Part shown: positions 2,175 to 54,213 of the stretch, piece after piece
How positions within the stretch are numbered: position 1 is the first letter of the stretch
Layout of the letters: each line of letters starts with the position of its first letter
Assembly: GCF_000402035.1 (NCBI RefSeq)
Contig: NC_021287.1
Span: 2,790,001-2,854,000 of the forward strand
Direction of reading: 5' to 3'
Length of the DNA: 64,000 nucleotides
From: Caballeronia insecticola
GTDB lineage: Bacteria > Pseudomonadota > Gammaproteobacteria > Burkholderiales > Burkholderiaceae
Position numbers and translations under genes: made by a program
Notes under the pieces: generated by a model
The model's input: the letters and a program-made list of their open reading frames with translations, nothing else
What the model was told of the DNA's origin: nothing
Databases searched by the model: none

Positions 2175-2209
2175 CACGCCCTCCTTTCTAAATAGTCTAG
2201 AAATGTTGA

Positions 2210-2333
2210 CGTGAGCGCCGTTCGATGCGGTGGCTCAGCGGGCATTTTCCATGCCTTCGAACCGTCCGGATTGAATGCTCCGAGCCTGGCGGGCGAATGT
2301 AAAGCGATTACCCGTCGCAACGCTCCTCGGAAG
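2210..2333 (-). promoter_or_regulatory. SAH riboswitch
   Basis: Read on the minus strand, the leader of ahcY contains CCGAGGAGCGTTGCGACGGG (2330-2311), then GCCAGGCTCGG (2290-2280), and ends with AACGGCGCTCACG (2222-2210). These are the conserved blocks of the S-adenosylhomocysteine riboswitch, an aptamer known to turn on SAH-recycling genes when SAH accumulates. The CCGAG/CTCGG and GAGCG/CGCTC pairings form its stems and pseudoknot. It ends about 36 nt before the ahcY start, so control of translation or of transcription is possible. Confidence 0.95.
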
Positions 2334-2342
2334 CGAGTGGCG

Positions 2343-18267: not shown

Positions 18268-19680
18268 ATGTCCTCCGTTTCTCTTCTCGGCGCGCTTTCG
18301 GGCGCGGCGTCTTCGAACAAGGCGGCGTCGCAGCGTGCGGCGAGCGCGGCTGTGTCTTTCGGCATGACGCTGCAGGGCATCACCGACCGCGCGAACGCCG
18401 ACGCGCAGGCCGCGCAGGCGCGGGCGGATTCGGCGCAGGCCTCGGGCGACAAATCGAGCGTGCACGACGCGCCGAAGCCCGACGACAGCGCGCATGCAGC
18501 GGATGCGTCCAATACGTCCGATGCGTCCACCGCGCACGCTGCCGACAAGGCTGATCCGTCCGCGAAGCCGGAGGCATCGAAGCATGCGGGCAAGAGCGAT
18601 TCGGCGGATGCATCGAAGCCCGCGACGCAATCGGCGGGGGCTTCGTCGGATGCGGCTGCGGCGGCCGCGCAGGCGAAAGCGCGTGCAGATGCCGCCGACG
18701 CCGGCGACACCGACCCGACACTCGCAGAACTGAGCGACGCAGCCGTCGCCGCGACGGCGAGCGACGCGACCGGCGACACGAAATCGACCGGCGACGCGCA
18801 CAAGAGCGGCGATGCGCAATCGGCGCAATCAACACAATCGGCGCAGGACGCGTTGCAGGCGGCGCTCGCGGCGCTGAACAATCCGCAGCCGAACGCGCTG
18901 CCGGCGAACGCGGCGGCGGCCAATGGTTCTGCCGCGACGGCGCGCGAAGGTGCCGAGGGCGCGGAATCGGGCGTGCTGTCCGGCAAGGGCGGAAAGCGTG
19001 GAGACGGCGCGAGCCTGATCGCCCTGACGAATAACGCGAACGTGAACGCGACTGTGGACGCGAAGGCGGCGCAACTCGACGCCGCCGCTCAGGCCGTCGC
19101 AACGACGCCCGCCGATGCCGCGACCGCCGCATACAAGGAAGCCGCCGACGCGGCAGCGCATGCGGTGGCGCTGCAGGCGGCTTCGGCGAATTCGGCGGTG
19201 TCGAGCCCGCAAGGTTCGATGGCGGCGGCGACCAGCGCGGCGATTGCGCCGCACGTCGGCGGTTCCGGCTGGGACGATGCGTTCAGCCAGAAGGTCGTGT
19301 TTCTGTCGAAGTCGGATCAGACGAGCGCCGAGCTGACGCTGAATCCGAAGGATCTCGGGCCGTTGCAGGTGACGTTGCAGGTTTCGGAGAATCACGCGCA
19401 CGCGTTGTTCGTGTCGCAACACTCGCAGGTGCGCGAAGCGGTCGAGGCCGCGATGCCTAAGCTGCGCGAGGCGATGGAGGCGAATGGCATCAGTCTCGGG
19501 AGTGCTTCGGTATCGGATGGGTCGGCGTTTGCGCGCCAGTCGCAGCAAGGGAGCGGTGGCGAGCGCTCCGGCTCGCGTCGGGATGGCTCCGGCGGTGGCG
19601 TTGGTGGCGGCGGTGCCGTCGCGGCGGGTGTGAATGTGGCCGTGCGGCGCAGCGTCGGGATTGTGGATACGTTTGCCTGA
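18268..19680 (+). CDS. fliK: Flagellar hook-length control protein FliK
   Basis: A 470-residue protein. A long Ala/Asp/Ser-rich disordered N-terminus (about 1-320) acts as the molecular ruler. It is followed by the C-terminal substrate-switching domain (about 335-430: AELTLNPKDLGPLQVTLQVSENHAHALFV, REAVEAAMPKLREAMEANGI) and a Gly/Ser-rich tail. LNPxxLGxLxV is the FliK hallmark. It is the last gene of the fliF operon, and a 628-bp repeat lies just downstream. A FliK-like paralogue lies at 9.6 kb. Confidence 0.95.
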   Translation: MSSVSLLGALSGAASSNKAASQRAASAAVSFGMTLQGITDRANADAQAAQARADSAQASGDKSSVHDAPKPDDSAHAADASNTSDASTAHAADKADPSAKPEASKHAGKSDSADASKPATQSAGASSDAAAAAAQAKARADAADAGDTDPTLAELSDAAVAATASDATGDTKSTGDAHKSGDAQSAQSTQSAQDALQAALAALNNPQPNALPANAAAANGSAATAREGAEGAESGVLSGKGGKRGDGASLIALTNNANVNATVDAKAAQLDAAAQAVATTPADAATAAYKEAADAAAHAVALQAASANSAVSSPQGSMAAATSAAIAPHVGGSGWDDAFSQKVVFLSKSDQTSAELTLNPKDLGPLQVTLQVSENHAHALFVSQHSQVREAVEAAMPKLREAMEANGISLGSASVSDGSAFARQSQQGSGGERSGSRRDGSGGGVGGGGAVAAGVNVAVRRSVGIVDTFA

Positions 19681-19746
19681 CGGCTTTGGTTTTTTTTCGT
19701 GGAATCCTGATATTGCGGTGGGGTGTTTTCGGGGTTTCGTTGTCGT

Positions 19747-20374
19747 GGAATCCTGAGTTCACGTCGGTCTATTTGTGTTGCCCCTGTGCGGGGCGGCAGT
19801 CACTTTCTTTGCTGCTGCAAAGAAAGTAACCAAAGAAACAGCTCTCCCCATCCAAAGCACTTCACGCCGGCCGCGGCACAGGCGAATTGCCTGTGGCCCG
19901 GCAATAGCAAGTGCCGTTATAGGTCAACGTTTCTTGGCTCGCGGAACACTGTGGCATCGCGCCGTTTAACGGACTGGCACAGCACCAAATAGCTCCGGCC
20001 CGCTTCGCGGCCGACGGGTCAATCGGGTCGGCGCGTGCTTCTTTGCTGACGCTTCCATCTCGCCGCATACGCGGCACGTCGGTTTCCCTTGCAGACCCAG
20101 CGGCAGCGCGCAGCGCTGTGCCGGAACTCTTTCGTGCTGAGCCAGTGCGCTAAAAGGAATGGCGAGTCAGACCGTGCGCGAGCCAAGTCCGGCGAGACCT
20201 TTGAGGGCTACGGCTACTCCCGTGCCATAGGCAATTCGCCTGTGCCGGGGCCGGCGTGAAGTACTTTGGATGGGAGGAGCTGTTTCTTTGGTTACTTTCT
20301 TTGCAGCAGCAAAGAAAGTGACTGCCGCCCCGCACAGGGGCAGTGCTAATAGACCGACGCGAATTCAGGATTCA
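19747..20374 (+). repeat. 628-bp dispersed repeat with about 145-bp terminal inverted repeats, copy A
   Basis: The element starts GGAATCCTGA and ends TCAGGATTC. Its two ends are near-perfect inverted repeats for roughly 145 bp, containing the hairpins GCCCC-tgtgc-GGGGC and ACTTTCTTTGC-tgct-GCAAAGAAAGT. The middle matches the reverse complement of copy B (30486-31113) throughout, with only scattered differences, and both copies are 628 bp. Short frames inside (for example one reading MRGGSHFLCCCKES at the right end) are consequences of the repeat, not convincing genes, and there is no transposase. It fills most of the 863-bp fliK-fliL gap. Its origin as a non-autonomous mobile element is an inference. 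Confidence 0.88.
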
Positions 20375-20455
20375 ACGAAACAGGCGTCCACGAAAGCCCA
20401 AAGCGAAGCGAACAAAAAAAACCGCCGCCCCGCGCAGGGGCCAAAGCAATCAGAT

Positions 20456-20530
20456 GGAATAACCCCAAATCCCCCCTCTGTTCGACCCATCGCTTTACAC
20501 CGCGATCGCCAACAATTCAACCTATCGAAA
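20456..20530 (+). promoter_or_regulatory. Flagellar early-operon promoter element (fliL)
   Basis: The box GGAATAACCCC...CCTCTGTTCG (20456-20484) is followed by CAACAATTCAACCTATCGAA at 20510-20529. It is nearly identical in sequence and spacing to the region before fliP, and related to those before fliF, flhB and flgA/flgB. The fliL start lies 14 bp after the second block. Confidence 0.65.
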
Positions 20531-20543
20531 GAGGCACGCATTC

Positions 20544-21032
20544 ATGGCTACCACGACCGCAAACCAGCAACCCATCGTCCCCGCGAAGAGCGGGAAGCTC
20601 AAGCGCATCCTGATCATCGCCGTCGGCGCGATCGTCCTGCTCGGCGCGGGAGCCGGAGGCGCCTACTTCTTCCTCGGCAAGAATCACGGCCCGGCCAAGC
20701 CCGCTCCCGAGCCGCCGCCCGTGTTCTTCCCGCTCGACTCGCTCACGGTCAACCTCCAGTCCGACGACGGCTCCATGCACTATCTCCGCTCCGGCCTCAC
20801 GCTCAAGCTGAAGGACGAAAAGGTTCAGTTGCTCGTCACCGAGCACATGCCCGAAGTCCGCAGCCGCGTGCTGCTTCTGCTCTCCGGCAAGCGCCCCGAA
20901 GACCTCGCGAGCGTCGACGGCAAGAAGCAGCTCGCGAGCGAACTGCGCGCGGCGGTCGAGACGGCGGCGAGCACGGCAGAAAAGCCGGTGCGCGTCGAAG
21001 AGGTGCTGTTCACCGAATTCGTCGTTCAGTAA
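20544..21032 (+). CDS. fliL: Flagellar basal-body-associated protein FliL
   Basis: A 162-residue inner-membrane protein: a short cytoplasmic N-terminus, one transmembrane helix near residues 27-50 (ILIIAVGAIVLLGAGAGGAYFFL), and a periplasmic FliL domain (FFPLDSLTVNLQSDDGSMHYLRSGL...EEVLFTEFVVQ). FliL surrounds the stator and supports torque. It is the first gene of fliLMNO(PQR), read from the element at 20456. Confidence 0.95.
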   Translation: MATTTANQQPIVPAKSGKLKRILIIAVGAIVLLGAGAGGAYFFLGKNHGPAKPAPEPPPVFFPLDSLTVNLQSDDGSMHYLRSGLTLKLKDEKVQLLVTEHMPEVRSRVLLLLSGKRPEDLASVDGKKQLASELRAAVETAASTAEKPVRVEEVLFTEFVVQ

Positions 21033-21056
21033 CGCGGCATCATCGAGTAAAGAGTC

Positions 21057-22055
21057 ATGGGCCACGAAGAGTTCATGTCGCAAGAGGAGGTCGATGCCCT
21101 CCTCAAGGGCGTCACCGGCGAAATCGATCAGGTCTCGGACGAGACCAAACCCGCCGGTGTACGTCCCTACAACATCGCGACGCAGGAACGCATCGTCCGC
21201 GGCCGGATGCCCGGCCTCGAAATCATCAACGACCGCTTCGCGCGTCTCATGCGCGTGGGCATCTTCAACTTCATGCGGCGTTCGGCGGAAATCTCCGTCG
21301 GTCCGGTGAAGGTGCAGAAATACAGCGAGTTCACGCGCAACCTGCCGATCCCGACCAATCTCAACCTGGTCCACGTGAAGCCGTTGCGCGGCACGTCGCT
21401 GTTCGTGTTCGACCCGAACCTCGTGTTCTTCGTGGTCGACAATTTGTTCGGCGGCGACGGGCGTTTTCATACGCGCGTCGAAGGCCGCGAATTCACGCAG
21501 ACCGAGCAGCGCATCATCAGCAAGCTGCTCAATCTGGTGTTCGAGCATTACTCGACGTCCTGGCGCAGCGTGAAGCCGCTCCAGTTCGAATACATGCGCT
21601 CGGAGATGCACACGCAGTTCGCCAACGTGGCGACGCCGAACGAGATCGTCATCGTGACGCAGTTCACGATCGAGTTCGGCTCGACGGGCGGCACGCTGCA
21701 CATCTGCATGCCGTACTCGATGATCGAGCCGATCCGCGATGTGCTTTCCTCGCCGATTCAGGGCGAAGCGCTCGAAGTGGACCGCCGCTGGGTGCGCGTG
21801 CTGTCGCAGCAGGTGCAGTCGGCGGAAGTGGAGCTGACGGTGGATCTCGCGACCGTGCGCTCGTCGTTCGAGCAGATTCTCAACATGCGCGCAGGCGACG
21901 TGTTGCCGATCGACGTGCCGGAGCATGTCGTCGCGAAAGTGGATGGCGTGCCGGTCATGGAATGCGGCTACGGAATTTTCAATGGTCAATACGCGCTGCG
22001 CGTGCAGAAGATGATCAGCGCAAGCGACACGATGAAGGAAGGTGGATATGAGTGA
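21057..22055 (+). CDS. fliM: Flagellar motor switch protein FliM
   Basis: A 332-residue C-ring protein of normal length. The N-terminus EEFMSQEEVDALLKGVTGE is the CheY-P-binding peptide. The middle domain holds the GGXG-type FliG-contact loop (LFGGDGRFHT, about 131-140), and the C-terminal SpoA/FliN-like domain ends the protein. It is second in the fliL operon, with its end overlapping the fliN ribosome binding region. Confidence 0.98.
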   Translation: MGHEEFMSQEEVDALLKGVTGEIDQVSDETKPAGVRPYNIATQERIVRGRMPGLEIINDRFARLMRVGIFNFMRRSAEISVGPVKVQKYSEFTRNLPIPTNLNLVHVKPLRGTSLFVFDPNLVFFVVDNLFGGDGRFHTRVEGREFTQTEQRIISKLLNLVFEHYSTSWRSVKPLQFEYMRSEMHTQFANVATPNEIVIVTQFTIEFGSTGGTLHICMPYSMIEPIRDVLSSPIQGEALEVDRRWVRVLSQQVQSAEVELTVDLATVRSSFEQILNMRAGDVLPIDVPEHVVAKVDGVPVMECGYGIFNGQYALRVQKMISASDTMKEGGYE

Positions 22056-22476
22056 TCTGATGCAGAACGACGCGCCCGGCGCGCCTGAAAAAGACGAAGA
22101 GCTCCTGCTGGACGACTGGGCGAGCGCGCTCGCCGAGCAGAACGGCAACGAAGCGCCGGCTGCGGCCGCGGGCGTGTTCCAGCCGCTGTCGAAGGCCGCG
22201 GCGCCGTCCACGCGCAACGACATCGACATGATTCTCGATATCCCCGTGCAGATGACGGTGGAACTCGGGCGCACGAAGATCGCGATCCGCAACCTGCTGC
22301 AACTCGCGCAAGGCTCGGTCGTGGAACTCGACGGCCTCGCCGGCGAACCGATGGACGTGCTCGTGAACGGCTGCCTCATCGCGCAGGGCGAAGTGGTCGT
22401 CGTCAACGACAAGTTCGGCATTCGCCTGACCGACATCATCACGCCGTCCGAACGCATCCGGAAGCTGAACCGATGA
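22048..22476 (+). CDS. fliN: Flagellar motor switch protein FliN
   Basis: A 142-residue C-ring protein. The C-terminal SpoA domain is typical (DIPVQMTVELGRTKIAIRNLLQ, GSVVELDGLAGEPMDVLVNG, GEVVVVNDKFGIRLTDI). The start ATG at 22048 has AAGGAAGG 5 nt upstream and was preferred to the GTG at 22042. It overlaps fliM by 8 bp and its stop overlaps the fliO start in ATGA. Confidence 0.97.
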   Translation: MSDLMQNDAPGAPEKDEELLLDDWASALAEQNGNEAPAAAAGVFQPLSKAAAPSTRNDIDMILDIPVQMTVELGRTKIAIRNLLQLAQGSVVELDGLAGEPMDVLVNGCLIAQGEVVVVNDKFGIRLTDIITPSERIRKLNR

Positions 22477-22973
22477 AACGCTTCGCCGCCTTGTTGTCCG
22501 CAGCGCCGCTTCTGGCGCGCGCCGCGGACATGAACGCCGTGAATCACGCGTCGCAGATCGCATCGAGCGTCGGCGCGGGCACCGCGGTGCCGTCGCTCGG
22601 CTTCGGCGCGGTGCTGCAAACGCTCGTCGGGCTCGTCGTCGTGATCGGCTTCGTGTTCGGCTGCGCGTGGCTCGCGCGCAAGTTCGGCTATCAGGGCGGC
22701 AGGCGCGGCGGTCTCGTGAAGGTCGTGGGCGGCGCATCGCTCGGCAACAAGGAACGCGTCGCGGTCGTCGAAGTCGGCGATACGTGGCTCGTGCTCGGCG
22801 CCGGTCCCGGCAACGTGCGTCTTTTGCACACCATGCCCGCCGGTTCGGCTGAAGTCGATAGCGTGGGCGTTGCGGCGTCTTCGCCTGCGGGCAACTTTAG
22901 CGCACGCTTTCGCGACGCCCTCGCGGGCGAAGCGAACAAACGTCTTCAGAAGTTCGCCGGTTCGGGCAAATAA
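22473..22973 (+). CDS. fliO: Flagellar biosynthesis protein FliO
   Basis: A 166-residue protein with an N-terminal hydrophobic segment that could be a signal sequence, one firm membrane helix near residues 48-70 (VLQTLVGLVVVIGFVFGCAWL), and a cytoplasmic domain containing VVGGASLGNKERVAVVEVGDTWLVLG, the usual FliO block. FliO is a scaffold for assembly of the FliP ring. It is coupled to fliN by the ATGA overlap. A 171-bp gap with its own promoter-like element separates it from fliP. Confidence 0.9.
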   Translation: MKRFAALLSAAPLLARAADMNAVNHASQIASSVGAGTAVPSLGFGAVLQTLVGLVVVIGFVFGCAWLARKFGYQGGRRGGLVKVVGGASLGNKERVAVVEVGDTWLVLGAGPGNVRLLHTMPAGSAEVDSVGVAASSPAGNFSARFRDALAGEANKRLQKFAGSGK

Positions 22974-23055
22974 TCCCTACGCGTTTTTCAATGCATCGGG
23001 CGTGCTCCGCGAGGGTCACGCCCGATGTCCGTTCAAGCGGCCGCGCGCAATAGAA

Positions 23056-23131
23056 CGAGTTAGCCCCAAATCCCCCTTCTGTTCGCGCCATCGTCGGATG
23101 AATGGATAGACAACAATTCAGCCTATCGAAA
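23056..23131 (+). promoter_or_regulatory. Flagellar early-operon promoter element (fliP)
   Basis: CGAGTTAGCCCC...TTCTGTTCG (23056-23085) and CAACAATTCAGCCTATCGAA (23111-23130) repeat the fliL leader with identical spacing. The distance to the following ATG (14 bp) and the first bases of the reading frame (ATGGCTA-CACG) also match fliL. This suggests a duplicated promoter segment within the fliL-fliR run. Confidence 0.65.
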
Positions 23132-23144
23132 CAGGCAGGTTGTC

Positions 23145-23960
23145 ATGGCTATCACGTTCGTCATTTCCCAGAGCCGGCGGGAGCAAGTAATGCAGGTTAG
23201 TCGCAACATCGCGCGCGGCGTGAAGATCGCGCTGCCGGTCATCGCCGGATTGATGCCGTATCTCGCGTTCGCGCAAAGCACCGCGGGTCTGCCCGCCTTC
23301 AACACCAGCCCCGGCCCGAACGGCGGCACGACGTATTCGCTCAGCGTGCAGACGATGCTGCTGCTGACGATGCTCTCGTTCCTCCCCGCAATGGTCCTGA
23401 TGATGACGAGCTTCACGCGCATCATCATCGTGCTGTCGCTGCTGCGTCAGGCGCTCGGCACGGCCAGCACGCCGCCGAATCAGGTGCTCGTCGGCCTCGC
23501 GCTGTTTCTCTCTTTCTTCGTGATGTCGCCGGTGCTCGACCGCGCCTACAACGACGCGTACAAGCCGTTTTCCGAAGGCCAGATCGCGATGGATCAGGCG
23601 ATGACGCGCGGCGTCGCGCCCTTCAAGCAGTTCATGCTCAAGCAGACGCGCGAGTCCGATCTCGCGCTGTTCGCGCGCATCTCGAAGGCCGCGCCGATGA
23701 ACGGTCCGGAAGACGTGCCGCTGTCGCTGCTGGTGCCGTCCTTCGTCACGAGTGAACTCAAGACCGGTTTCCAGATTGGCTTCACGATCTTCATTCCGTT
23801 TCTCATCATCGACATGGTGGTGGCGAGCGTGCTGATGTCGATGGGCATGATGATGGTCTCGCCCACGACCATCGCGCTGCCGTTCAAGCTGATGCTGTTC
23901 GTGCTCGTCGATGGCTGGCAGTTGCTGATCGGCTCGCTCGCACAAAGTTTCGTTTCCTGA
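23145..23960 (+). CDS. fliP: Flagellar type III export gate protein FliP
   Basis: A protein of 271 residues from the ATG at 23145, or 256 from the ATG at 23190. FliP is made with a cleaved signal peptide, seen here as the hydrophobic stretch ending ...LMPYLAFAQ. The first 15 residues before it ([15 protein letters not shown]) are an unusual extension, and the 23190 start with GGGAG 6 nt upstream looks more natural. The core has [33 protein letters not shown] (FliP signature) and four membrane helices. It forms the export channel with FliQ and FliR. Confidence 0.95.
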
Positions 23961-23983
23961 TTTCGTATCCTGAGGAGACCCGC

Positions 23984-24253
23984 ATGACACCCGAATCCGT
24001 CATGACGATGGCCCATCAGGCGATGTACGTCGCCTTGCTGCTGGCCGCGCCGCTGTTGCTTGTCGCACTGGTCGTCGGTCTGGTGGTGAGCCTGTTTCAG
24101 GCGGCCACGCAGATCAACGAGTCGACGCTGTCGTTCATCCCGAAGCTGATCGCGGTGGCGGTGACGCTCGTGATCGCGGGTCCGTGGATGCTCGCGACGC
24201 TGCTCGATTACATGCGCCACGTCTTCACGATCACGCCTGCGATCACTGGCTGA
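23984..24253 (+). CDS. fliQ: Flagellar type III export gate protein FliQ
   Basis: An 89-residue protein with two membrane helices. The segment VALVVGLVVSLFQAATQINESTLSFIPKL is the FliQ signature, and the length is normal. GAGGAG lies just upstream of the ATG. FliQ packs against the outside of the FliP-FliR channel. It is followed after 10 bp by fliR. Confidence 0.97.
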   Translation: MTPESVMTMAHQAMYVALLLAAPLLLVALVVGLVVSLFQAATQINESTLSFIPKLIAVAVTLVIAGPWMLATLLDYMRHVFTITPAITG

Positions 24254-24263
24254 GTGTGCGCCG

Positions 24264-25058
24264 ATGTTCTCCGTCACTTACGCGCAACTGAACGGCTGGC
24301 TCACGGCGTTTCTGTGGCCGTTCGTGCGCATTCTCGCGCTGATCGCGACCGCGCCCGTGCTGAGCCACATGGCGATCCCGATGCGCGTGAAGATCGCGCT
24401 GGCCGCGTTCGTTTCGCTGATCGTCGCGCCGACGCTTCCCGCCATGCCGCAGGCGACGGTGTTCTCGGCGGCAGGCGTGTGGATCATCGTGAATCAGTTT
24501 CTGATCGGCGCGGCCATCGGCATGACGATGCAGATCGCATTCGCCGCCGTCGATGCAGCCGGCGAGTTCATCGGCCAGCAAATGGGCCTCGGCTTCGCGA
24601 TGCTTTACGATCCGCGCGCGGGCGGCAATGCGGTGGTGGTTTCGCGTTATCTCAACACGCTTGCAATGCTCGCGTTCCTCGTCTTCGATGGACACTTGCA
24701 GTTGCTGAGCGCGCTTGTCGCTACGTTTCAGAGCGTGCCGGTCGAGGCGAATGTCGTGGCCGCCGCGTCGCATGCGCAAGGGTGGCGCATTCTCGTCGGC
24801 TACGGCGCGAGCGTGTTTTCGACGGGCTTGTTGCTGGCGTTGCCCGTCGTGGCCGCGCTTCTGATTGCGAATCTCGCGCTGGGCATTCTCAATCGGGCAG
24901 CGCCGCAGATCGGCATTTTTCAGGTCGGCTTTCCGGTGACGATGCTCATCGGTCTGTTGCTGTTGCAACTGATGGTGCCGAACCTGATGCCGTTCTTTCA
25001 GCGCATATTCGATGTCGGAATCGCGCAGGTGGGACGCGTCGCGGGCGGGATGTTCTAG
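24264..25058 (+). CDS. fliR: Flagellar type III export gate protein FliR
   Basis: A 264-residue polytopic membrane protein with the FliR features (VKIALAAFVSLIVAPTLP, GEFIGQQMGLGFAMLYDP, INRAAPQIGIFQVGFP-type LNRAAPQIGIFQVGFPVTMLIG). It caps the FliP pentamer in the export gate. Its stop codon overlaps by 4 bp that of the convergent methyltransferase-glycosyltransferase gene, leaving no room for a separate terminator. Confidence 0.97.
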   Translation: MFSVTYAQLNGWLTAFLWPFVRILALIATAPVLSHMAIPMRVKIALAAFVSLIVAPTLPAMPQATVFSAAGVWIIVNQFLIGAAIGMTMQIAFAAVDAAGEFIGQQMGLGFAMLYDPRAGGNAVVVSRYLNTLAMLAFLVFDGHLQLLSALVATFQSVPVEANVVAAASHAQGWRILVGYGASVFSTGLLLALPVVAALLIANLALGILNRAAPQIGIFQVGFPVTMLIGLLLLQLMVPNLMPFFQRIFDVGIAQVGRVAGGMF

Positions 25059-26797
25059 CGCCGCCGCGCCTCCGACCATTCGCCGAGCCACGCGCCGATA
25101 CGTGCGACGACTTTCGTCCAGTCGTCGCCCCACTCCGTCCGCAGAAGACGCATGCTCGGATACCACGGGCTGTCCTCGCGGATATAGTGCCAGCGCCAGT
25201 CGCCATACGACGGCAGCATCAGCCAGACCGGCGTGCCGAGCGCGCCCGCCACATGCGCGACGGACGTATCCACGGTCACGACGACATCCAGTGCCATGAT
25301 CGCGCTGGCGGTCTGCTCCATGGTCGTCACGTGTGCGCCGATATCGTGGAAGTTGGGCAATCGTTCCGCATAGTCCGCCGCTTCGTCCGCGCCCGCGCCT
25401 TTTTGCAGGCTGTAGAACTCGGCGCCTTCAATGGCGAACAAAGAGTCGAGCACGGAAAGCGACGGAAGCGAGCGCGAGGCATCGTTCTCGTGCGTCGGGT
25501 CGCCCTTGAACACGATGCCCACTTTCACGGCGCGCGCATCGAGTTGCTCCATGCCGGGTGCGGGCACATCCGGCGCGCGAAGATACGGTATCGATGGCGG
25601 CAGCGCGTCGAGATCGAGCGGCAGATGCGCGGGGATCGCGTGGGGATAGACCCAGAAGTCGTGCGGCGGGATCGAGCCGGCGTCTTTTACGTCGATGATC
25701 GCGTCCGCTTCACCCGATGCTTCGAAGAGCTTCGTGAGCGGCGACTGACACACGACGCTGACGCTGGCCGCGCCCGCCCGCTCGCGCAGAATGCGGGCGA
25801 AGCGGAAGAAGAAGATCTCGTCGCCGAGCCCGAACTCGCTCCAGATGACGATGCGCTTGCCGGCGAGCGGTTCGCCCTTCCATGCTGGCGTGTCCTGCGG
25901 CGGTTCGGCTTTCGTGCGGCGCTGCCAGCGCATCCGCTTGGCGATTTGCTCGCGCTGAGTGAAGCCTGCTTTCAGCCGCCCAACCGAAATTTGATGGTAC
26001 GCGCGCGACAGGAGCGCCTGGTTTTCGTGCGGCATGGTTTCCACTGCGCGCTCGACCACGACGTCCATGTGCGAAAGCTCACGCCAGCGGAGCAAATGCT
26101 GCACCGCAACAAGATGGACGTCGGAGCGATACGGATAAGTCTCGATCGCCGTGTAACACGCCGCGACGCAAGCCTCCGCGCTCTTCACCGTGAAGATCGC
26201 CTTCACGCATTCGCTCATGCTTCGCACCTGGCGCTTGCGCAACACGAGTTCGATGATGCTTTCGGCCGATGCGTCCGCCGACTCATCTGCCGACTCATCC
26301 GCCGCCTCATTGGCCCGATCATCGCGAATGACCGCGAGCCGCTCGCATTGAGCGACATGCCCCAGCTTCTTCACGACTTCGAGCATATCGATGCAAGGTA
26401 ACGACGCGCTCGATGCCCCGCCGATCGAGAAGCTCCATTTGTGCGTTGCGTCGCCGTGTTCGTTCGGCACGGTAACGATCGCATGGCCGCCCGGCTTGAG
26501 CAGATCGAGCCATCGCGACAGCGCCTGCACGGGATCGTGCTGCGCGGCAAGACAGAAGTCCGCGTGCACGAAATCGAGCGATATGTCGTCGACGCCGTTC
26601 ATGTAAATCTCGCCGCCCAGCGACGTGTTCCACCACAGCACCTTCGAGACCTTGGGGAACAGATGGCTCAGGGGCCTGAAGTGTGACGCATCCGGTGCGA
26701 AATCGAGGCCCGCGCCGGCCAGATAGCGCTGCACGAATTCCGGATCGCGCGCGCGGCGCTCCGCTGTCTTGATCGCTGCTTCCACTCTCGTCTCCAC
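25055..26797 (-). CDS. Methyltransferase-like / glycosyltransferase fusion, candidate flagellin-modification enzyme
   Basis: A 580-residue protein. Residues about 30-130 look like the late part of a class I SAM methyltransferase (SLDFVHADFCLAAQHDPVQAL, LLKPGGHAIVTVPNE), but the glycine-rich SAM motif is not obvious. An acidic Ala-Asp-Glu-Ser tandem (about 160-180) follows, then a helical TPR-like region. The C-terminal part is GT9/heptosyltransferase-like (WSEFGLGDEIFFFRFARIL; VVTVDTSVAHVAGALGTPVWLMLP). Start GTG at 26797; GTG 26785 has the better-spaced GGAG. Lying between flgL and fliR, it may modify flagellin; no substrate can be read from sequence. Confidence 0.75.
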   Translation of the reverse strand: METRVEAAIKTAERRARDPEFVQRYLAGAGLDFAPDASHFRPLSHLFPKVSKVLWWNTSLGGEIYMNGVDDISLDFVHADFCLAAQHDPVQALSRWLDLLKPGGHAIVTVPNEHGDATHKWSFSIGGASSASLPCIDMLEVVKKLGHVAQCERLAVIRDDRANEAADESADESADASAESIIELVLRKRQVRSMSECVKAIFTVKSAEACVAACYTAIETYPYRSDVHLVAVQHLLRWRELSHMDVVVERAVETMPHENQALLSRAYHQISVGRLKAGFTQREQIAKRMRWQRRTKAEPPQDTPAWKGEPLAGKRIVIWSEFGLGDEIFFFRFARILRERAGAASVSVVCQSPLTKLFEASGEADAIIDVKDAGSIPPHDFWVYPHAIPAHLPLDLDALPPSIPYLRAPDVPAPGMEQLDARAVKVGIVFKGDPTHENDASRSLPSLSVLDSLFAIEGAEFYSLQKGAGADEAADYAERLPNFHDIGAHVTTMEQTASAIMALDVVVTVDTSVAHVAGALGTPVWLMLPSYGDWRWHYIREDSPWYPSMRLLRTEWGDDWTKVVARIGAWLGEWSEARRR

Positions 26798-26899
26798 GAC
26801 CCTTCGGTCCCATGCACGTTTTAAAGGCTCGAAAGTTTATTGACGAGCGTGAATCGCCGGCATAGGAAAACGCCTATTCGCACGAATGCGCGTGCAAAT

Positions 26900-26937
26900 G
26901 AGGCGTTGAAAGGAGGCGTCGAAAGGAGGCGTTAAGG
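26900..26937. repeat. Three 13-bp tandem repeats, GAGGCGTYGAAAG
   Basis: GAGGCGTTGAAAG, GAGGCGTCGAAAG and GAGGCGTTAAGG follow one another in the 238-bp spacer between flgL and the glycosyltransferase fusion. No coding capacity. They could be an operator or a replication-slippage product. The rest of this spacer has a GC-rich hairpin near 26955-26985 but no clear terminator. Confidence 0.7.
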
Positions 26938-27035
26938 AAACGAGGTTTCGGCGGGCGGCATCCACCGCCCGGGCGCCGGAGCTTACTGAAGCGCAAGCGC
27001 CCGATCGGGATGAGGACTTCGGAACCGAAGCCCGA

Positions 27036-28271
27036 TCAATTGCCGATATAGTCGAACAGCGACATCTTCTGGATCTGCGAGAAGGCCATTTGCGCCGCCT
27101 GCAGCGATGTCTGCGTCAACTCATACTGGCTGATCGACGAAACCAGATCGATGCTCGTCAGATTGGCGATATCGCTTGCCGTCTGCGTCGTGCTCGCCTG
27201 CATCGTCGATTGCGTCGACTGCACTTCCTGCTCGCGGCCGCCCACCACCGTCTGCGCCGCCAGCACGTTGTTGAACGTGTTGTTGATCTTTGTGCCTGCG
27301 GTCGTCAGGGCATTGGTGAGCGTCGCTTGCGCACCGGGCGAACCCGTCGGCTGCTTGAGCGCATTCACGATGTTGTCGAGCGTCGCGAAGATGTCGTTGT
27401 TACCCGACGACGCCGGTTGCACCGTGAAGCTGTCGCCGTCGGCGGGCGCGCCGTCGAGCGTCACCTTCTGGCCGCCGAGCGTGACGTCGGTCTTTCCGGT
27501 GTACGCGACGTTGGTCGGCAGCGACGAATCCGCCGGGTTCGACGTGATCGAATAAGTCGTCGAGCCATCCGTCTGCGATACGGAGAACTTGATCGTGTAC
27601 GTGCTCGCATTGCCCGCGTTGCTCGTGTCGCTCACGCTCACCGCGCTGATCGTGCCGGTGCCCTTGTTCTGGGCGCCCGCGCTCGATACCGGATCGCTTT
27701 CCGTTGGCGAGACGCTGCCGAAGATCGACAGACCCGTGTCGCCCACCGCGATCGAACGTCCTTCGCTGATCTGCACTGTGCGCTGGCCGAGGTCGCCCGA
27801 ATACGTCGTGCCGACGCCCGACGGATCGTCCGAGAACGGCGCCGTGCCGCCTTTGAGACCCGAGAAGATGTAGTTGCCGCTGCTGTCGGTGGTGTTCGCG
27901 AGGCCGAACAACTGGCCGCGCAGACCCTGAATCGCGTTGGCGATCGACGTGCGGTCCGCATCGGTGAGCGAGCCGTCGCCTGCGTGCACGATCTGCGTCT
28001 GAATGCTTTGCAGCACGTTGCTCACGCCGCCGAGCGTCGAATCTTCCTGCTGCAACGACGAAAGCGCGGTCGTCTGATTCGTGCCGTATTGCGCGAGCGC
28101 GCCGCTCTTCAACGTGAGCTGCACCGCCTGCGCCGCGCCGAGCGGATCGTCGGATGCGGTGAGAATGCGCTTGCCCGACGAGATCTGCTGATACATCGAC
28201 GCAAGCGTGCTTTGCTGGTCGCTCATCGAAGCGACGTTCATGTTGAAGTACTGTGAACTGGAAATGCGCAT
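27036..28271 (-). CDS. flgL: Flagellar hook-filament junction protein FlgL (HAP3)
   Basis: A 411-residue protein exported to the hook tip. The N-terminus MRISSSQYFNMNVASMSDQQSTL, with ISSGKRILTASDDPLGAAQ, and the C-terminus (LVSSISQYELTQTSLQAAQMAFSQIQKMSLFDYI) form the paired flagellin-like helices typical of FlgL. It starts 10 bp after the flgK stop and belongs to the flgK operon. Confidence 0.96.
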   Translation of the reverse strand: MRISSSQYFNMNVASMSDQQSTLASMYQQISSGKRILTASDDPLGAAQAVQLTLKSGALAQYGTNQTTALSSLQQEDSTLGGVSNVLQSIQTQIVHAGDGSLTDADRTSIANAIQGLRGQLFGLANTTDSSGNYIFSGLKGGTAPFSDDPSGVGTTYSGDLGQRTVQISEGRSIAVGDTGLSIFGSVSPTESDPVSSAGAQNKGTGTISAVSVSDTSNAGNASTYTIKFSVSQTDGSTTYSITSNPADSSLPTNVAYTGKTDVTLGGQKVTLDGAPADGDSFTVQPASSGNNDIFATLDNIVNALKQPTGSPGAQATLTNALTTAGTKINNTFNNVLAAQTVVGGREQEVQSTQSTMQASTTQTASDIANLTSIDLVSSISQYELTQTSLQAAQMAFSQIQKMSLFDYIGN

Positions 28272-28281
28272 CGCGTTTGCC

Positions 28282-30225
28282 TCAGTTGAACATGCCGAGC
28301 AGCGACTGGAACAGCGTCGCGGCGGTCTGAATCACCTTGCTGTTCGCTTGATAAAGCTGCTGATACTGAATCAGGTTGGCCGCTTCTTCGTTCAGGTTCA
28401 CGCCCTGCACCGATTGCTGCGCCGTGGTCGCCTGCGAAAGCAGCGCGGTCTGCGCCGAACTCGTGGCCTTGAGCTGATTGGTCTGGTTGCCGATCGTGTT
28501 CACGTAGCCCGCGTACGAACTCGTGAGCGTGTCGGTGCCGCCGTTGAGCGACTTCGCCGATACCAAGTTGGCCATCGCGAGCGCATTGCTGCCGTCGCTC
28601 GTGCCGCCCTTGTTCTGCGCGACGTTGAACACGTCGTTGTTTTTCGGCGTGCCGCTGATCGTCGCGGACACGCCGTTCGATACGACCGTCATGCCCTTCG
28701 ACGCGTCGTACGGAATGGTCGTGCCGGCCGCGTAAGCGGTGCCGCCGACATTGAGCGCGACGTTCGACTTGAAGCCGCCCGCAGCCGAATCGTAGGTCAG
28801 GCTGATGTCGGCGGTCATCGAATAGCCCTTCGAGATCGTCGCCGACGAAATCGATGCCGTGCCGGTGTTCGCGCTCGCCGCCGACGTCACCGCAGGCGAC
28901 GCCGCCGCGATCGCCGCGCCGTTGCTCGTCGTGAGCTGGAAGGCATCGAGAGCGCCGCGCGTCGGCTGGATCGTGAAGGAGTCGCCCTTTTGCACGCCGG
29001 TCATGCCGGACACGTCAATCTTCAAGCCGTTGATGGTCGCGTTGCCGACTGCCGGATCGATGGTGCCGAGCTTCTGCCCGCTCGCCGGGTCCGTTACCGT
29101 GTACTGGCTGCCGTCGAAACTGACGGTGAAGTCGTTGGTCGGCGGCTGCGTGCCATCGACGATCGATGCCGTCGGCGTGCCGGTGCCCTTGTTGCGCGCG
29201 TTGGCGAGAATGTTCGGTGCGCCCGCCGCGAAGAGATCGCCGCCCTTCACGCCGTTGAGGTCCACGCCGAGCGCGTTCTGGCCGTTCAGTTGGCTCGCGA
29301 AACTGGTCGCGATGGCGCCGAGTTGCGCCTGCGCCGGATCGAGCGTCTGCGTGCGGAAGTCGATCAGACCGCCGACGACGCCGCCCGTCAACGCCGAGTT
29401 GTCGAGATATTGCGTCGTGGCGGGCGTTTGCGTCGAGCCATCGCGGCTTTGAAACGCAACCGTGAGTTCGCTCGGATCGGACGGCGACGGCGCGGTCTGC
29501 AAGCCGTACTGCGTATTGCCGACGACGAGCGGCTGCCCGTTACCGATGAACACGTTGTAGTTGCCGTCCTGCTGCACGACCTGCACGCCGATCATCGAAC
29601 TCAGGTTCGTGACGAGTTGATCGCGCTGATCGAGCAACTGGTTCGGTTGCTGTCCGCCCGCGGTCGCGATGTTGATCTGCTTGTTGAGATCGGCGATCTG
29701 CTGCGAATAGCTGTTGATCTGCGTGACGGCGCTGGTCAGTTGCGTGTTGACGCTCTGACGCAACTGATCGTATTGCTCGCCGGCCGAATTGATCTGATCG
29801 GCGAGCGTTTGTGCGTTGCTCATCAGCGACTGACGCGCGGCCGAGCTATTCGCCGAGTTCGCCACCGACTGCAGGCCGGAGAAGTAATTCGTGATGCCCT
29901 GCGCGATGCCTTTGGTCGGATCGCCGACGAGGTTGTTCAGTTGCGAGATGAGCGAGTAATACGTGCTGGCCGCGCTGCTCGACGCCTGCGTGTTGTTCAC
30001 TTGCGTCGTCAGATACTGGCTGTACTGACGCGTCACGGTGACGGCCTGCACGCCGCCGCCGAGATAGCCCGAGCCGGTGAACTGCCCGGGCGACTCCTGA
30101 TACGAGACCTTTTCGAGCGTATAGCCCGGCGTCGCGGCGTTGCTGATGTTCTGGCCCGTCGTCGTCAGGCCCCACTGGGCCGCATTCAGACCGGAGAGAC
30201 CAATGCTGAAGATGTTGTTGGACAT
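28282..30225 (-). CDS. flgK: Flagellar hook-filament junction protein FlgK (HAP1)
   Basis: A 647-residue protein starting MSNNIFSIGLSGLNAAQWGL with the rod/hook motif NISNAATPGYT. The C-terminal block VNLNEEAANLIQYQQLYQANSKVIQTAATLFQSLLGMFN is the canonical FlgK end. The frame is open upstream to 30390, but AGGA 8 nt before the ATG at 30225 and the conserved start decide it. A sigma-28 promoter lies at 30281-30307. It is followed by flgL. Confidence 0.97.
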   Translation of the reverse strand: MSNNIFSIGLSGLNAAQWGLTTTGQNISNAATPGYTLEKVSYQESPGQFTGSGYLGGGVQAVTVTRQYSQYLTTQVNNTQASSSAASTYYSLISQLNNLVGDPTKGIAQGITNYFSGLQSVANSANSSAARQSLMSNAQTLADQINSAGEQYDQLRQSVNTQLTSAVTQINSYSQQIADLNKQINIATAGGQQPNQLLDQRDQLVTNLSSMIGVQVVQQDGNYNVFIGNGQPLVVGNTQYGLQTAPSPSDPSELTVAFQSRDGSTQTPATTQYLDNSALTGGVVGGLIDFRTQTLDPAQAQLGAIATSFASQLNGQNALGVDLNGVKGGDLFAAGAPNILANARNKGTGTPTASIVDGTQPPTNDFTVSFDGSQYTVTDPASGQKLGTIDPAVGNATINGLKIDVSGMTGVQKGDSFTIQPTRGALDAFQLTTSNGAAIAAASPAVTSAASANTGTASISSATISKGYSMTADISLTYDSAAGGFKSNVALNVGGTAYAAGTTIPYDASKGMTVVSNGVSATISGTPKNNDVFNVAQNKGGTSDGSNALAMANLVSAKSLNGGTDTLTSSYAGYVNTIGNQTNQLKATSSAQTALLSQATTAQQSVQGVNLNEEAANLIQYQQLYQANSKVIQTAATLFQSLLGMFN

Positions 30226-30280
30226 GCGTGAATCCTGGTGAGGCGGCGTGGGTTCGGGCGCTGCCGCATGGGTGCCTTGT

Positions 30281-30307
30281 TTATCGGCCGATTGCCGGGG
30301 AAGTTGA
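30281..30307 (-). promoter_or_regulatory. Sigma-28 (FliA) promoter of flgKL
   Basis: On the minus strand, TCAACTTC (30307-30300), then 11 bp, then a perfect GCCGATAA (30288-30281), about 55 bp before the flgK start. The -10 half is the full FliA consensus and the spacing is exact; the -35 half is the weaker part. The promoter lies between flgK and repeat copy B, so the repeat does not separate it from its gene. Confidence 0.85.
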
Positions 30308-30485
30308 GGTTTTGCTTGAGCGACTCGTCGCGGGGGGTGCGGAAGCTGGGCGCTCGTTGCGATGGGGCCATTATCGGCGGGTAGGGGCAATGGCTATTGC
30401 CCGAAGAGCTTGGGGTTTTGGCTTTATTCTTCGGTTTTGGGTTTTTGCTCTTTTTGCTCTTTTTGCTTTGTGCTTGGGCTTCTAG

Positions 30486-31113
30486 GGAATCCTGAATTCA
30501 CGTCGGTCTATTAGCACTGCCCCTGTGCGGGGCGGCAGTCACTTTCTTTGCTGCTGCAAAGAAAGTAACCAAAGAAACAGCTCCTCCCATCCAAAGCACT
30601 TCACGCCGGCCCCGGCACAGGCGAATTGCCTATGGCACGGCAATAGCCATTGCCCTCAAAGGTCTAACCGGGCTTGGCTCGCGCACGATCTGACTCGCCA
30701 AACGTTTCAGGGCGCTGGCTCAGCACGAAAGAGTTCCGGCACAGCGCTGCGCGCTGCCGCTGGGTTTGCAAGGGAAACCGACATGCCGCGCATGCGGCGA
30801 GATGGAAGCGTTAGCAAAGAAGCACGCGCCGACCCGATTGACCCGTCGGCCGCGAAGCGGGCTGGAGCTATTTGGTGCTGTGCCAGTCCGTTAAACGGCG
30901 CGATGCCACAGTGTTCCGCGAGCCAATACGCGTTGACCCTCGAGGGCACCTGCTATTGCCGTGCCACGGGCAATTCGCCTGTGCCGCGGCCGGCGTGAAG
31001 TGCTTTGGATGGGGAGAGCTGTTTCTTTGGTTACTTTCTTTGCAGCAGCAAAGAAAGTGACTGCCGCCCCGCACAGGGGCAGTGCTAATAGACCGACGCG
31101 AACTCAGGATTCC
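30486..31113 (-). repeat. 628-bp dispersed repeat with about 145-bp terminal inverted repeats, copy B
   Basis: Starts GGAATCCTGA and ends TCAGGATTCC, and is the reverse complement of copy A (19747-20374) along its whole length with only scattered changes. The terminal inverted repeats hold the same perfect ACTTTCTTTGC/GCAAAGAAAGT hairpin and the GCCCC/GGGGC hairpin. It sits between the flgK promoter and ycgR, in a 912-bp gap without a credible gene. Small frames inside mirror those of copy A. It is inverted relative to copy A, with 10.1 kb between them. Confidence 0.88.
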
Positions 31114-31137: not shown

Positions 31138-31908
31138 CTACTTCGCCAAAGACCGCCGCTTCATCTCAAGCTGAGTAATAAGCCGCTGCAGCGTATTCTC
31201 CGCCGACCCCGGCATGGAAGTGAACTTGAAGCCCATCGTATACCGCCGATCGCCCTTCGGCGTAGTCGACTCACGATGCGAAACAAGCATCATATCCAGC
31301 GTCACTCTGCCATTCGCGCTGAAATGCAACTCAGCATCCTGAATCACGATGCCCATCTCGAGATTCGCAACACGTTCATCGGTCGTCCGCAACGCAACGC
31401 CACCGAGCGAAAGATCATGCACCTCGAAGCGAAAGCGCTCGCCATCCGGCAACGACCCCGTGCAGATATACGGGTCCAGCACCGGCGCCTCGACGCGGAA
31501 ATACTCGCGCCGCTGCATGTAATAAAGCACCTGAGGAAATTCCGCCTCGAACGCCGGGCGTCCGTCGAACACGGTCTCGCGCGGGGGCGCTGTCGTGAAT
31601 TCGACCCGCACGCCCTCCGGCGCCGCGTTGAAAATGAGCTTCTGCGAAGCTAGCACGCCGCGATTCTGCTCGGCCACGCCGCCCCAGTCGAAGGTGAAGC
31701 GATGCGCCGTCACGTCGACGTCCAGCAAGCGCGTCACGATCTGCCCGTCGCCATATTGCGCCGTCAGGAAATCGCCGCGATGGGCGAGATTGCGCAACGC
31801 CACGCCGATTTCGAGCGGATTACGCCGCCCGAAGTCCACGATCGGGGCAATATCCTCGTCGGCGACGTCATGCTTGTGATTGGTGTTCATGGTGCTAGCC
31901 GTGTTCAT
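31138..31908 (-). CDS. ycgR: c-di-GMP-responsive flagellar brake protein YcgR
   Basis: About 256 residues from the ATG at 31908 (250 from the ATG at 31890; the frame is open to 31974). The N-terminal YcgR domain (FGRRNPLEIGVALRNLAHRGDFLTAQY) is followed by a PilZ domain with the c-di-GMP-binding RRxxxR-type motif QRREYFRVEAP (about residues 128-138) and the later DLSLGGVALR block, matching (D/N)xSxxG. YcgR bound to c-di-GMP slows the flagellar motor at the stator-rotor interface. A sigma-28 promoter lies about 80 bp upstream. Confidence 0.92.
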   Translation of the reverse strand: MNTASTMNTNHKHDVADEDIAPIVDFGRRNPLEIGVALRNLAHRGDFLTAQYGDGQIVTRLLDVDVTAHRFTFDWGGVAEQNRGVLASQKLIFNAAPEGVRVEFTTAPPRETVFDGRPAFEAEFPQVLYYMQRREYFRVEAPVLDPYICTGSLPDGERFRFEVHDLSLGGVALRTTDERVANLEMGIVIQDAELHFSANGRVTLDMMLVSHRESTTPKGDRRYTMGFKFTSMPGSAENTLQRLITQLEMKRRSLAK

Positions 31909-31988
31909 TGTGCACGCGCGCCGCTCGCTTTTCCGAACCTCGCGCGTCGGTCCGAACCCAGATGGGCCCGGCATTTCGATTATTCAGG

Positions 31989-53838: not shown

Positions 53839-53975
53839 TGGGGCCTCGGTTCGCCAGACAAAAAAGGGCCACGCAGCGCACATTTCGCTAGCGGATTTTC
53901 AGCGCGCGTGCGGCATCGATGCTATTTCGATACTGCACGCAAAACGCGTTCCGACTGGCGGTTGCGATGCGTGAC

Positions 53976-54200
53976 CCCTCTGTCCTCGGTACCTGAGAGA
54001 TTGCGCGGATCACGGATGATCCGTCGCGCGCCCCTTCGGTGGGCAACTGGCTCGATCATTTCGACGAAGCCGCTGCCGCTCTCCAGAGTGCGAGGAAATT
54101 GATTTCCTCGACGCAGTCGGTCCTTTTGCCTGAGAGTTTGCGGGTGTGCCCCTTCGGCGGCGCGGTCTTCGCTGCATGAACGAAACCACGCGCTCTCCCG
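53976..54200 (-). promoter_or_regulatory. Tandem glycine riboswitch
   Basis: On the minus strand two similar aptamers follow one another. The first holds GGGAGAG (54199-54193), GCCGAAGGGGCA and CTCTCAGGCAAAAGGACCGA. The second holds CTCTGGAGAG, CACCGAAGGGGC and CTCTCAGGTACCGAGGACAG, ending near 53976. This is the classic paired glycine aptamer that turns on gcvTHP when glycine is abundant. The last 137 nt before gcvT would hold any expression platform; no strong T-tailed hairpin was seen there. Confidence 0.96.
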
Positions 54201-54213
54201 ACGCGTGCGGCAG

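What the first reader, a model, noticed from the sequence alone, without database searches (positions are those of the whole stretch)
19747..31113. Pair of inverted 628-bp non-coding repeats bracketing fliL-R, a glycosyltransferase and flgKL
Two elements of identical length (19747-20374 and 30486-31113) are reverse complements with only scattered differences. Each has about 145-bp terminal inverted repeats and perfect internal hairpins, and carries no transposase. They sit only in spacers between flagellar operons. They could be non-autonomous mobile elements moved in trans, structured RNAs, or recombination sites able to invert the 10 kb between them.
Basis: seen in the sequence. Interest (0 to 1): 0.72.

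Follow-up and report, generated by a model that had tools for sequence, protein, structure and literature searches.

The report
Giant palindromic repeats behind stop codons
Two mirror-image 628-base non-coding repeats around a flagellar gene block belong to an old bacterial family of giant hairpins that sit just behind genes, where related bacteria often have ordinary transcription stop signals, are kept alike within each genome, and mark places where this gene block has flipped or moved in relatives.

Summary
A (19747-20374) and B (30486-31113) are inverted copies, 590 of 628 bases identical; each is itself one long imperfect palindrome. They belong to a family of about 600 bp: 6 full copies in this genome, matches in 24 of 24 genus relatives searched; the genus is Caballeronia by its relatives.

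Among 66 full copies, two were called divergent and both look like miscalls; copies start a median 24.5 bp behind a stop codon. Sites A and B are old (hits in 32 of 50 and 29 of 50 genomes). Yet copies resemble their own genome's copies more than their orthologues (55 of 58), and A-B beat any orthologue in 9 of 11 genomes: concerted evolution, most simply gene conversion.

In three relatives the flagellar block is inverted or relocated with elements or fragments at the junctions: slow recombination, not a shown switch.

Element-free relatives often have an intrinsic terminator there (10 of 13 at A, 10 of 21 at B). My best, unproven reading is a two-way transcription-unit boundary. No target duplication was found, no partner transposase seen, no description met in ten paper searches. 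Rfam Bp1_684 matches the ends below threshold.

The parts
19747..20374 (+). Element A, 628-bp near-palindromic non-coding element in the fliK-fliL spacer, 66 bp behind the fliK stop codon
30486..31113 (-). Element B, inverted copy of A (590 of 628 identical) in the ycgR-flgK spacer, 24 bp behind the ycgR stop codon
19747..19891 (+). Left outer arm of A (about 145 bp), pairs with the right outer arm at 93%
20230..20374 (+). Right outer arm of A
19780..19794 (+). Short GC hairpin GCCCCTGTGCGGGGC, followed by CACTTTCTTTG: terminator-like when read inward
   Evidence: sequence; the same module is scored in some relatives, not in A or B, by the detector
19802..19838 (+). Signature hairpin ACTTTCTTTGC-TGCT-GCAAAGAAAGTAACCAAAGAAA (left end of A)
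20283..20319 (-). Signature hairpin at the right end of A
30541..30577 (+). Signature hairpin at one end of B
   Evidence: genome coordinates minus 2790000
31022..31058 (-). Signature hairpin at the other end of B
19681..19746 (+). T/G-rich stretch between the fliK stop and A, with an extra partial end motif TCGTGGAATCCTGA near 19698-19711
   Evidence: family-wide composition
20375..20440 (+). A/C-rich, G-poor stretch after A
   Evidence: family-wide composition
18268..19680 (+). fliK, the gene reading into A
   Evidence: PF02120
20544..25058 (+). fliL, fliM, fliN, fliO, fliP, fliR (fliQ not tested), inside the A-B interval
25055..26797 (-). Glycosyltransferase/methyltransferase-like gene inside the interval (weak matches)
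27036..30390 (-). flgL (27036-28271) and flgK (28282-30390), inside the interval
   Evidence: flgK: (PF22638); flgL: Flagellin_N match and its place behind flgK
31138..31974 (-). YcgR-type gene (PilZN + PilZ), reading into B

Best explanation
A and B belong to an old family of about 600-bp non-coding, near-palindromic elements that occupy the ends of transcription units. SHOWN: the copies sampled sit a few tens of bases behind stop codons; sites A and B and 14 other sites are shared by species of the genus; copies are more alike within a genome than between orthologous sites, A with B most of all; and the flagellar block is inverted or moved in three relatives with elements or their fragments at the junctions. 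INFERRED: they act as two-way transcription-unit boundaries in place of ordinary terminators. Transcripts entering from either side meet the same GC hairpin plus CTTTCTTTG and then a very long hairpin that could shield the mRNA 3' end; what reads through enters an A/C-rich, G-poor stretch suited to Rho. INFERRED: homogenisation and rearrangement come from ordinary homologous recombination. Because each copy is almost its own reverse complement, a pair can act both as inverted repeats (inversion) and as imperfect direct repeats (excision).
For: Position: 66 copies (6 own, 60 taken from the places listed, 10 relatives): tandem 47, convergent 16, divergent 2, undetermined 1; distance from the stop of the gene reading in: n=80, median 24.5 bp. 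Both divergent calls look wrong: beside L006 a His_biosynth gene reads in; the orthologues of L103 are tandem. In the window 6 of 30 spacers of 50 bp or more are divergent; P=7e-5 for 2 of 65. Terminators: one scoring -15 or better within about 60 nt of the stop in 10 of 13 element-free A spacers and 10 of 21 at B. First 22 nt after the stop: T 0.52, A 0.03 in 20 element spacers, T 0.21, A 0.18 in 30 element-free ones, both sets picked by me. Sites: hits at A in 25 of 30 plus 7 of 20, at B in 29 of 30 plus 0 of 20. Best paralogue beats best orthologue in 55 of 58, 34 of 34 without A/B; A-B beats any orthologue in 9 of 11, and any other sampled own copy in 6 of 6; tree. Rearrangements.
Against: No transcript data, so termination is untested. 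3 of 13 element-free A spacers and 11 of 21 at B show no such terminator; A spacers whose fliK end was not found or that hold a fragment were left out. Element-free species are mostly the more distant ones, so the swap may be few events, and the gap between stop and element is too short to hold a terminator. The exit side is A-rich, not T-rich, so the outer stem is no classic intrinsic terminator; the detector calls nothing in A or B themselves. The inner arms of a copy do not co-vary copy by copy (0.756 against 0.750; own above mean in 26 of 65) and the two collars of a copy match no better than those of others. In G006 and G437 A-B is not closer than the best orthologue, and several genomes are split in the tree. 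At 2 of the 14 further shared sites the element lies in opposite orientation in different species, which fits flipping or re-insertion as well as conversion. Sense-strand wobble excess is modest (OR 1.61, p=0.006, five genomes; two of the five show almost none) and could be transcription-linked deamination.
Confidence: 0.55

Rival explanations
1. They are non-autonomous mobile elements (MITE-like), moved by a transposase in trans that prefers gene 3' ends. Old insertions persist and new ones overwrite old ones, which looks like concerted evolution.
For: Dispersed on several replicons and in many relatives; inverted ends; the outer 100-nt ends form one pool (own arms 0.897, other copies 0.894, same side 0.898); occupied and unoccupied versions of the same sites exist; opposite element orientation at 2 of 14 further shared sites.
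Against: No target duplication: flank words of 66 copies match no better than shuffled pairs (82 of 200 shuffles reach the observed mean). One search shows no further place with the long ends, though it would miss short shared ends and I did not annotate genes beside the remnants. 16 sites shared between species. Element-free sites lack the T-rich context.
Confidence: 0.25
2. They are outsized REP/BIME-type extragenic palindromes maintained by a RAYT (Y1 transposase).
For: Palindromic, extragenic, at 3' ends; 57 of 58 genus genomes hold a Y1_Tnp match over Pfam's cut-off.
Against: The common gene is weak (about 33 bits) and also present in genomes with only 2 element matches, such as G007, G012 and G018; in the own genome no element hit lies near it; the elements are about 600 bp, not tens of bases.
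Confidence: 0.1
3. A and B are a programmed inversion switch for flagellar genes.
For: Inverted orientation and inversions with elements at the junctions in two relatives.
Against: Only 2 of 35 genomes (own included) with both sites on one contig are inverted; the same element sits at many other genes. No recombinase was searched for.
Confidence: 0.04
4. They encode a large structured RNA or sRNA that is transcribed as a unit.
For: Rfam RF02421 (Burkholderia sRNA candidate) matches both ends at 41.6 and 34.9 bits against a threshold of 44; wobble pairs lean to the sense strand.
Against: Matches are below threshold; no per-copy compensation of inner arms; by its name the candidate comes from SIPHT, which uses terminator predictions (passage).
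Confidence: 0.06

Closest known systems
REP/BIME elements of enterobacteria and REPINs of Pseudomonas (features recalled; abstracts, passages of PMC12306157)
   Same: Extragenic palindromes, many copies, mostly transcribed with upstream genes; gene conversion has been raised for REP (title of a cited review seen)
   Different: Here about 600 bp, often where relatives have terminators, at orthologous sites across species; no RAYT link shown
Intergenic repeat families of Pseudomonas fluorescens SBW25/Pf0-1/Pf-5 (PMC2718517, passages)
   Same: Intergenic elements, some with inverted repeats, with a Tail-repeat-Tail bias that the authors link to terminator-like stem-loops
   Different: Those listed are 50-352 bp and read as MITEs; sequences not compared here
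Rfam RF02421 Bp1_684
   Same: Covers the end of the element and its flank
   Different: 113-nt sRNA candidate; the match is sub-threshold; the large palindrome is not part of the family
Bacterial MITEs such as ERIC and Correia elements (recalled)
   Same: Non-coding, inverted ends, intergenic
   Different: Shorter, with TA target duplication (recalled); no duplication found here

Membership tests
MITE (non-autonomous transposable element) | Terminal inverted repeats | tested here: met
   Outer 145 bp pair at 93-97%
MITE (non-autonomous transposable element) | Target-site duplication | tested here: not met
   Flank words of 66 copies match as in shuffled pairs; 1 of 66 has a shared word of 5 bases, none longer; boundaries known to a few bases only
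MITE (non-autonomous transposable element) | Autonomous relative sharing the ends | tested here: inconclusive
   None seen in the own genome by BLAST; short shared ends would be missed; other genomes not checked
REP/BIME with RAYT | Extragenic palindrome, not between divergent genes | tested here: met
REP/BIME with RAYT | Short unit (tens of bases) and RAYT gene flanked by the repeat | tested here: not met
   Unit is about 600 bp; no element hit near the Y1-like gene at C1:2635364
Invertible switch | Dedicated recombinase and mixed orientations in one strain | not testable with these tools
   One assembly per species and no reads; recombinase genes not searched for
Intrinsic terminator | GC hairpin followed at once by a T tract | tested here: inconclusive
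   The end module GC hairpin + CTTTCTTT scores -15 or better in 2 of 11 full-element A spacers and 3 of 13 at B, not in A or B of the window
Rfam RF02421 Bp1_684 | Score at or above 44 bits | tested here: not met
   41.6 and 34.9 bits

The most novel reading that the evidence does not exclude
A class of giant palindromic transcription-unit boundary elements, spread over Beta- and Gammaproteobacteria and recognised by the signature ACTTTCTTTGC-N-GCAAAGAAAGTA..CAAAGAAA, replaces ordinary terminators at many genes, evolves in concert within each genome, and sets the points where gene blocks invert or move.
Probability: 0.3. Interest if true: 0.82.

Novelty: new variant of a known kind. Interest (0 to 1): 0.62.

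Why it matters
If true, a set of bacteria ends many transcription units with 600-bp palindromes instead of terminators of a few tens of bases. It would show non-coding DNA that stays in place across a genus while its sequence is rewritten in each species, and it gives a simple cause for gene-order change at flagellar loci. The window's likely host is an insect symbiont (recalled) whose flagella are reported to matter in colonisation (recalled), so the effect could be tested. It would also warn that the small hypothetical proteins translated from these repeats (83 relatives of one such ORF) are probably spurious.

Tried and rejected
Protein coding: seven ORFs of the two elements and three of a distant palindrome (L123) have no Pfam or NCBIfam match beyond one chance-level hit (E 0.096) in L123; one ORF has 83 relatives, those with a given name being hypothetical or unknown proteins, mostly of Caballeronia and Paraburkholderia. 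Phage origin: no match in 50,697 phage records; one exact form of the signature is absent from viral contigs. Plasmid records: the five stretches opened carry no annotation, so gene context rests on my own codon-score ORF caller trained on the window. Strand-specific RNA folding: the first count (38 against 5 elements with more sense wobble pairs) was confounded with genome; the stratified test leaves OR 1.61. Per-copy compensation of inner arms and specific pairing of collars were tested and not found. Assembly artefact: rejected, since A and B differ at 38 positions and the sites are occupied in other genomes. A first alignment used loci in the wrong orientation and was redone. In some searches the gene at 31138 is labelled flgJ and the one at 32193 flgI; searches show ycgR and flgJ. 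A note says 8 relatives for the 60 copies; the right number is 10. Another note says about 36 same-contig genomes; the recount is 35.

Literature: sequence strings and word searches gave no description of this family in the open-licence library; most subscription papers are not in it. I saw only term hits and passages of PMC3521395 (neither the candidate's number nor the word repeat occurs), PMC2267715 (no hit), PMC12306157 and PMC2718517; all others only as search listings.

Full report
WHAT IS THERE. A (19747-20374) and B (30486-31113, reversed) are 628 bp each and agree at 590 positions without gaps. Each is a single long imperfect palindrome: the self-complement match covers 667 columns at 77.5%, the six own full copies fold to between -420 and -484 kcal/mol as RNA, and 192 other pieces of the window reach at most 41.7 bits of self-match against 357. 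The outer 145 bp pair at 93% (A) and 97% (B); the inner part is less regular. Each end of A carries a GC hairpin and a perfect hairpin CTTTCTTTGC-N4-GCAAAGAAAG. Pfam places the elements between fliK and fliL and between flgK and a YcgR-type gene.

FAMILY. The genome (6.96 Mb, 5 contigs) has 6 full copies, one shortened copy, one end remnant and one inner fragment. Of 24 genus relatives searched 24 have a match, six of them only two; outside the genus 2 of 16 genomes do. A looser signature pattern occurs in 11 of 398 phylum genomes (own included), with 0 hits for the reversed control pattern. Of 14 such distant loci checked, 8 show a large palindrome or widely spaced inverted arms and 6 do not. 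Among those 8 plus three Caballeronia/Paraburkholderia plasmid loci, 6 of 11 have genes called as reading in from both sides, some calls being weak (caller trained on the window).

PLACE. In 66 full copies the gene arrangement is tandem 47, convergent 16, divergent 2, undetermined 1, and the stop codon of the gene reading in lies at a median of 24.5 bp (n=80). Both divergent calls appear to be errors: beside L006 a His_biosynth gene reads in, and L103 has tandem orthologues. In the window 6 of 30 spacers of at least 50 bp are divergent. The copies were taken from the top of the BLAST list, so diverged or broken copies are under-represented.

COLLARS AND TERMINATORS. Bases 5-25 before the element are T 0.46, G 0.31, A 0.06, and those after it A 0.47, C 0.31, T 0.07. 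Element-free versions of sites A and B lack this (20 and 30 spacers that I picked; four element-free rows, G007 at A and G443, G458, G459 at B, were not included). So the collars seem to come with the element and not to be the target. At site A 10 of 13 and at site B 10 of 21 element-free spacers show an intrinsic terminator scoring -15 or better within about 60 nt of the stop (my detector; A rows without a recognisable fliK end or with an element fragment left out). At the same cut-off the detector calls the element's own end in 2 of 11 full-element A spacers and 3 of 13 at B, but not in A or B of the window. This suggests that the element took the place of terminators, with the caveat that element-free species are mostly the distant ones.

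OLD SITES, YOUNG SEQUENCES. Elements or pieces lie within up to 1.5 kb or 1.9 kb beside fliL in 25 of 30 close and 7 of 20 further genomes (three of the seven score only about 38-54 bits), and beside ycgR in 29 of 30 and 0 of 20; some hits are partial or at contig ends. Fourteen further sites are shared with both flanks homologous; at two of them the element has opposite orientation in different species. Yet in a tree of 89 elements copies group mostly by genome; some genomes, such as G005, G006, G008 and G021, are split or mixed. Of 58 elements with both kinds of partner, 55 have a closer paralogue than orthologue; mean identity 0.856 against 0.763. A and B are closer to each other than to any orthologue in 9 of 11 genomes, G006 and G437 being the exceptions, and A is closer to B than to any other sampled own copy in 6 of 6. 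Gene conversion, stronger between near neighbours, is the simplest cause; replacement by new insertions at the same sites is the alternative. Flanks show no target duplication.

REARRANGEMENTS. The common order is fliK>[A]fliL..fliR> <flgL<flgK[B]<ycgR, for example in G460 and, as far as its contig goes, in C. peredens (G446). In C. concitans (G438) the whole A-B block is inverted, with elements at both ends. In G454 only the block holding fliL-fliR is inverted, between A and a third element behind flgL. In Burkholderia sp. 8Y (G461) fliK and ycgR face each other across one element, matched in two pieces, and the fliL-flgK block lies about 38 kb away with element fragments (57 and 162 bp) near its ends. 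Of 35 genomes (own included) with both sites on one contig, 18 carry elements at A or B, and these three are among them; none of the other 17 is inverted (counted by hand). Of those 17, G019 was not examined at A, G023 and G459 have a weak fragment at A, and G464, G023 and G024 have unexplained longer distances of about 15-18 kb. Draft assembly error cannot be fully excluded for C. concitans.

RNA OR DNA. Wobble pairs prefer the sense strand modestly (OR 1.61, p=0.006 over five genomes; G010 and G020 show almost none). But the inner arms of one copy are no more alike than arms of different copies, so exact pairing is not under visible selection; the outer 100 nt behave as one shared pool. I therefore rate the boundary function at about even odds and the evolutionary facts as firmer.

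KNOWN KINDS. The behaviour is closest to REP/BIME elements and to the Tail-repeat-Tail repeats of P. fluorescens (PMC2718517, passages), but size, apparent terminator replacement and site conservation differ. Rfam RF02421 touches only the ends and below its threshold.

Noticed in passing
window 53970-54210, minus: Two glycine riboswitch aptamers in tandem (Rfam RF00504)
   Followed up: no
window 2206-2334, minus: SAH riboswitch (RF01057)
   Followed up: no
L018, around 1480-1575 (G000:C4 about 164294-164390): Short palindromic remnant made of just the two outer ends of the element, as if the inside was lost
   Followed up: partly
L196 10226-10813; L197 10203-10844; L317 9669-10475: A third element site behind flgL in some relatives, where the window has the glycosyltransferase-like gene
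   Followed up: partly
L061, L075, L101 and L071, L106: Two orthologous sites at which the element lies in opposite orientation in different species
   Followed up: no
G000:C1:2635364-2635654: Y1_Tnp-like match (33 bits); 57 of 58 genus genomes have at least one such match
   Followed up: no
   Followed up: no
L119 1492-1893: An A/T-rich locus with the signature hairpin at both ends in a distant genome that looks like Pasteurellaceae (my guess)
   Followed up: partly
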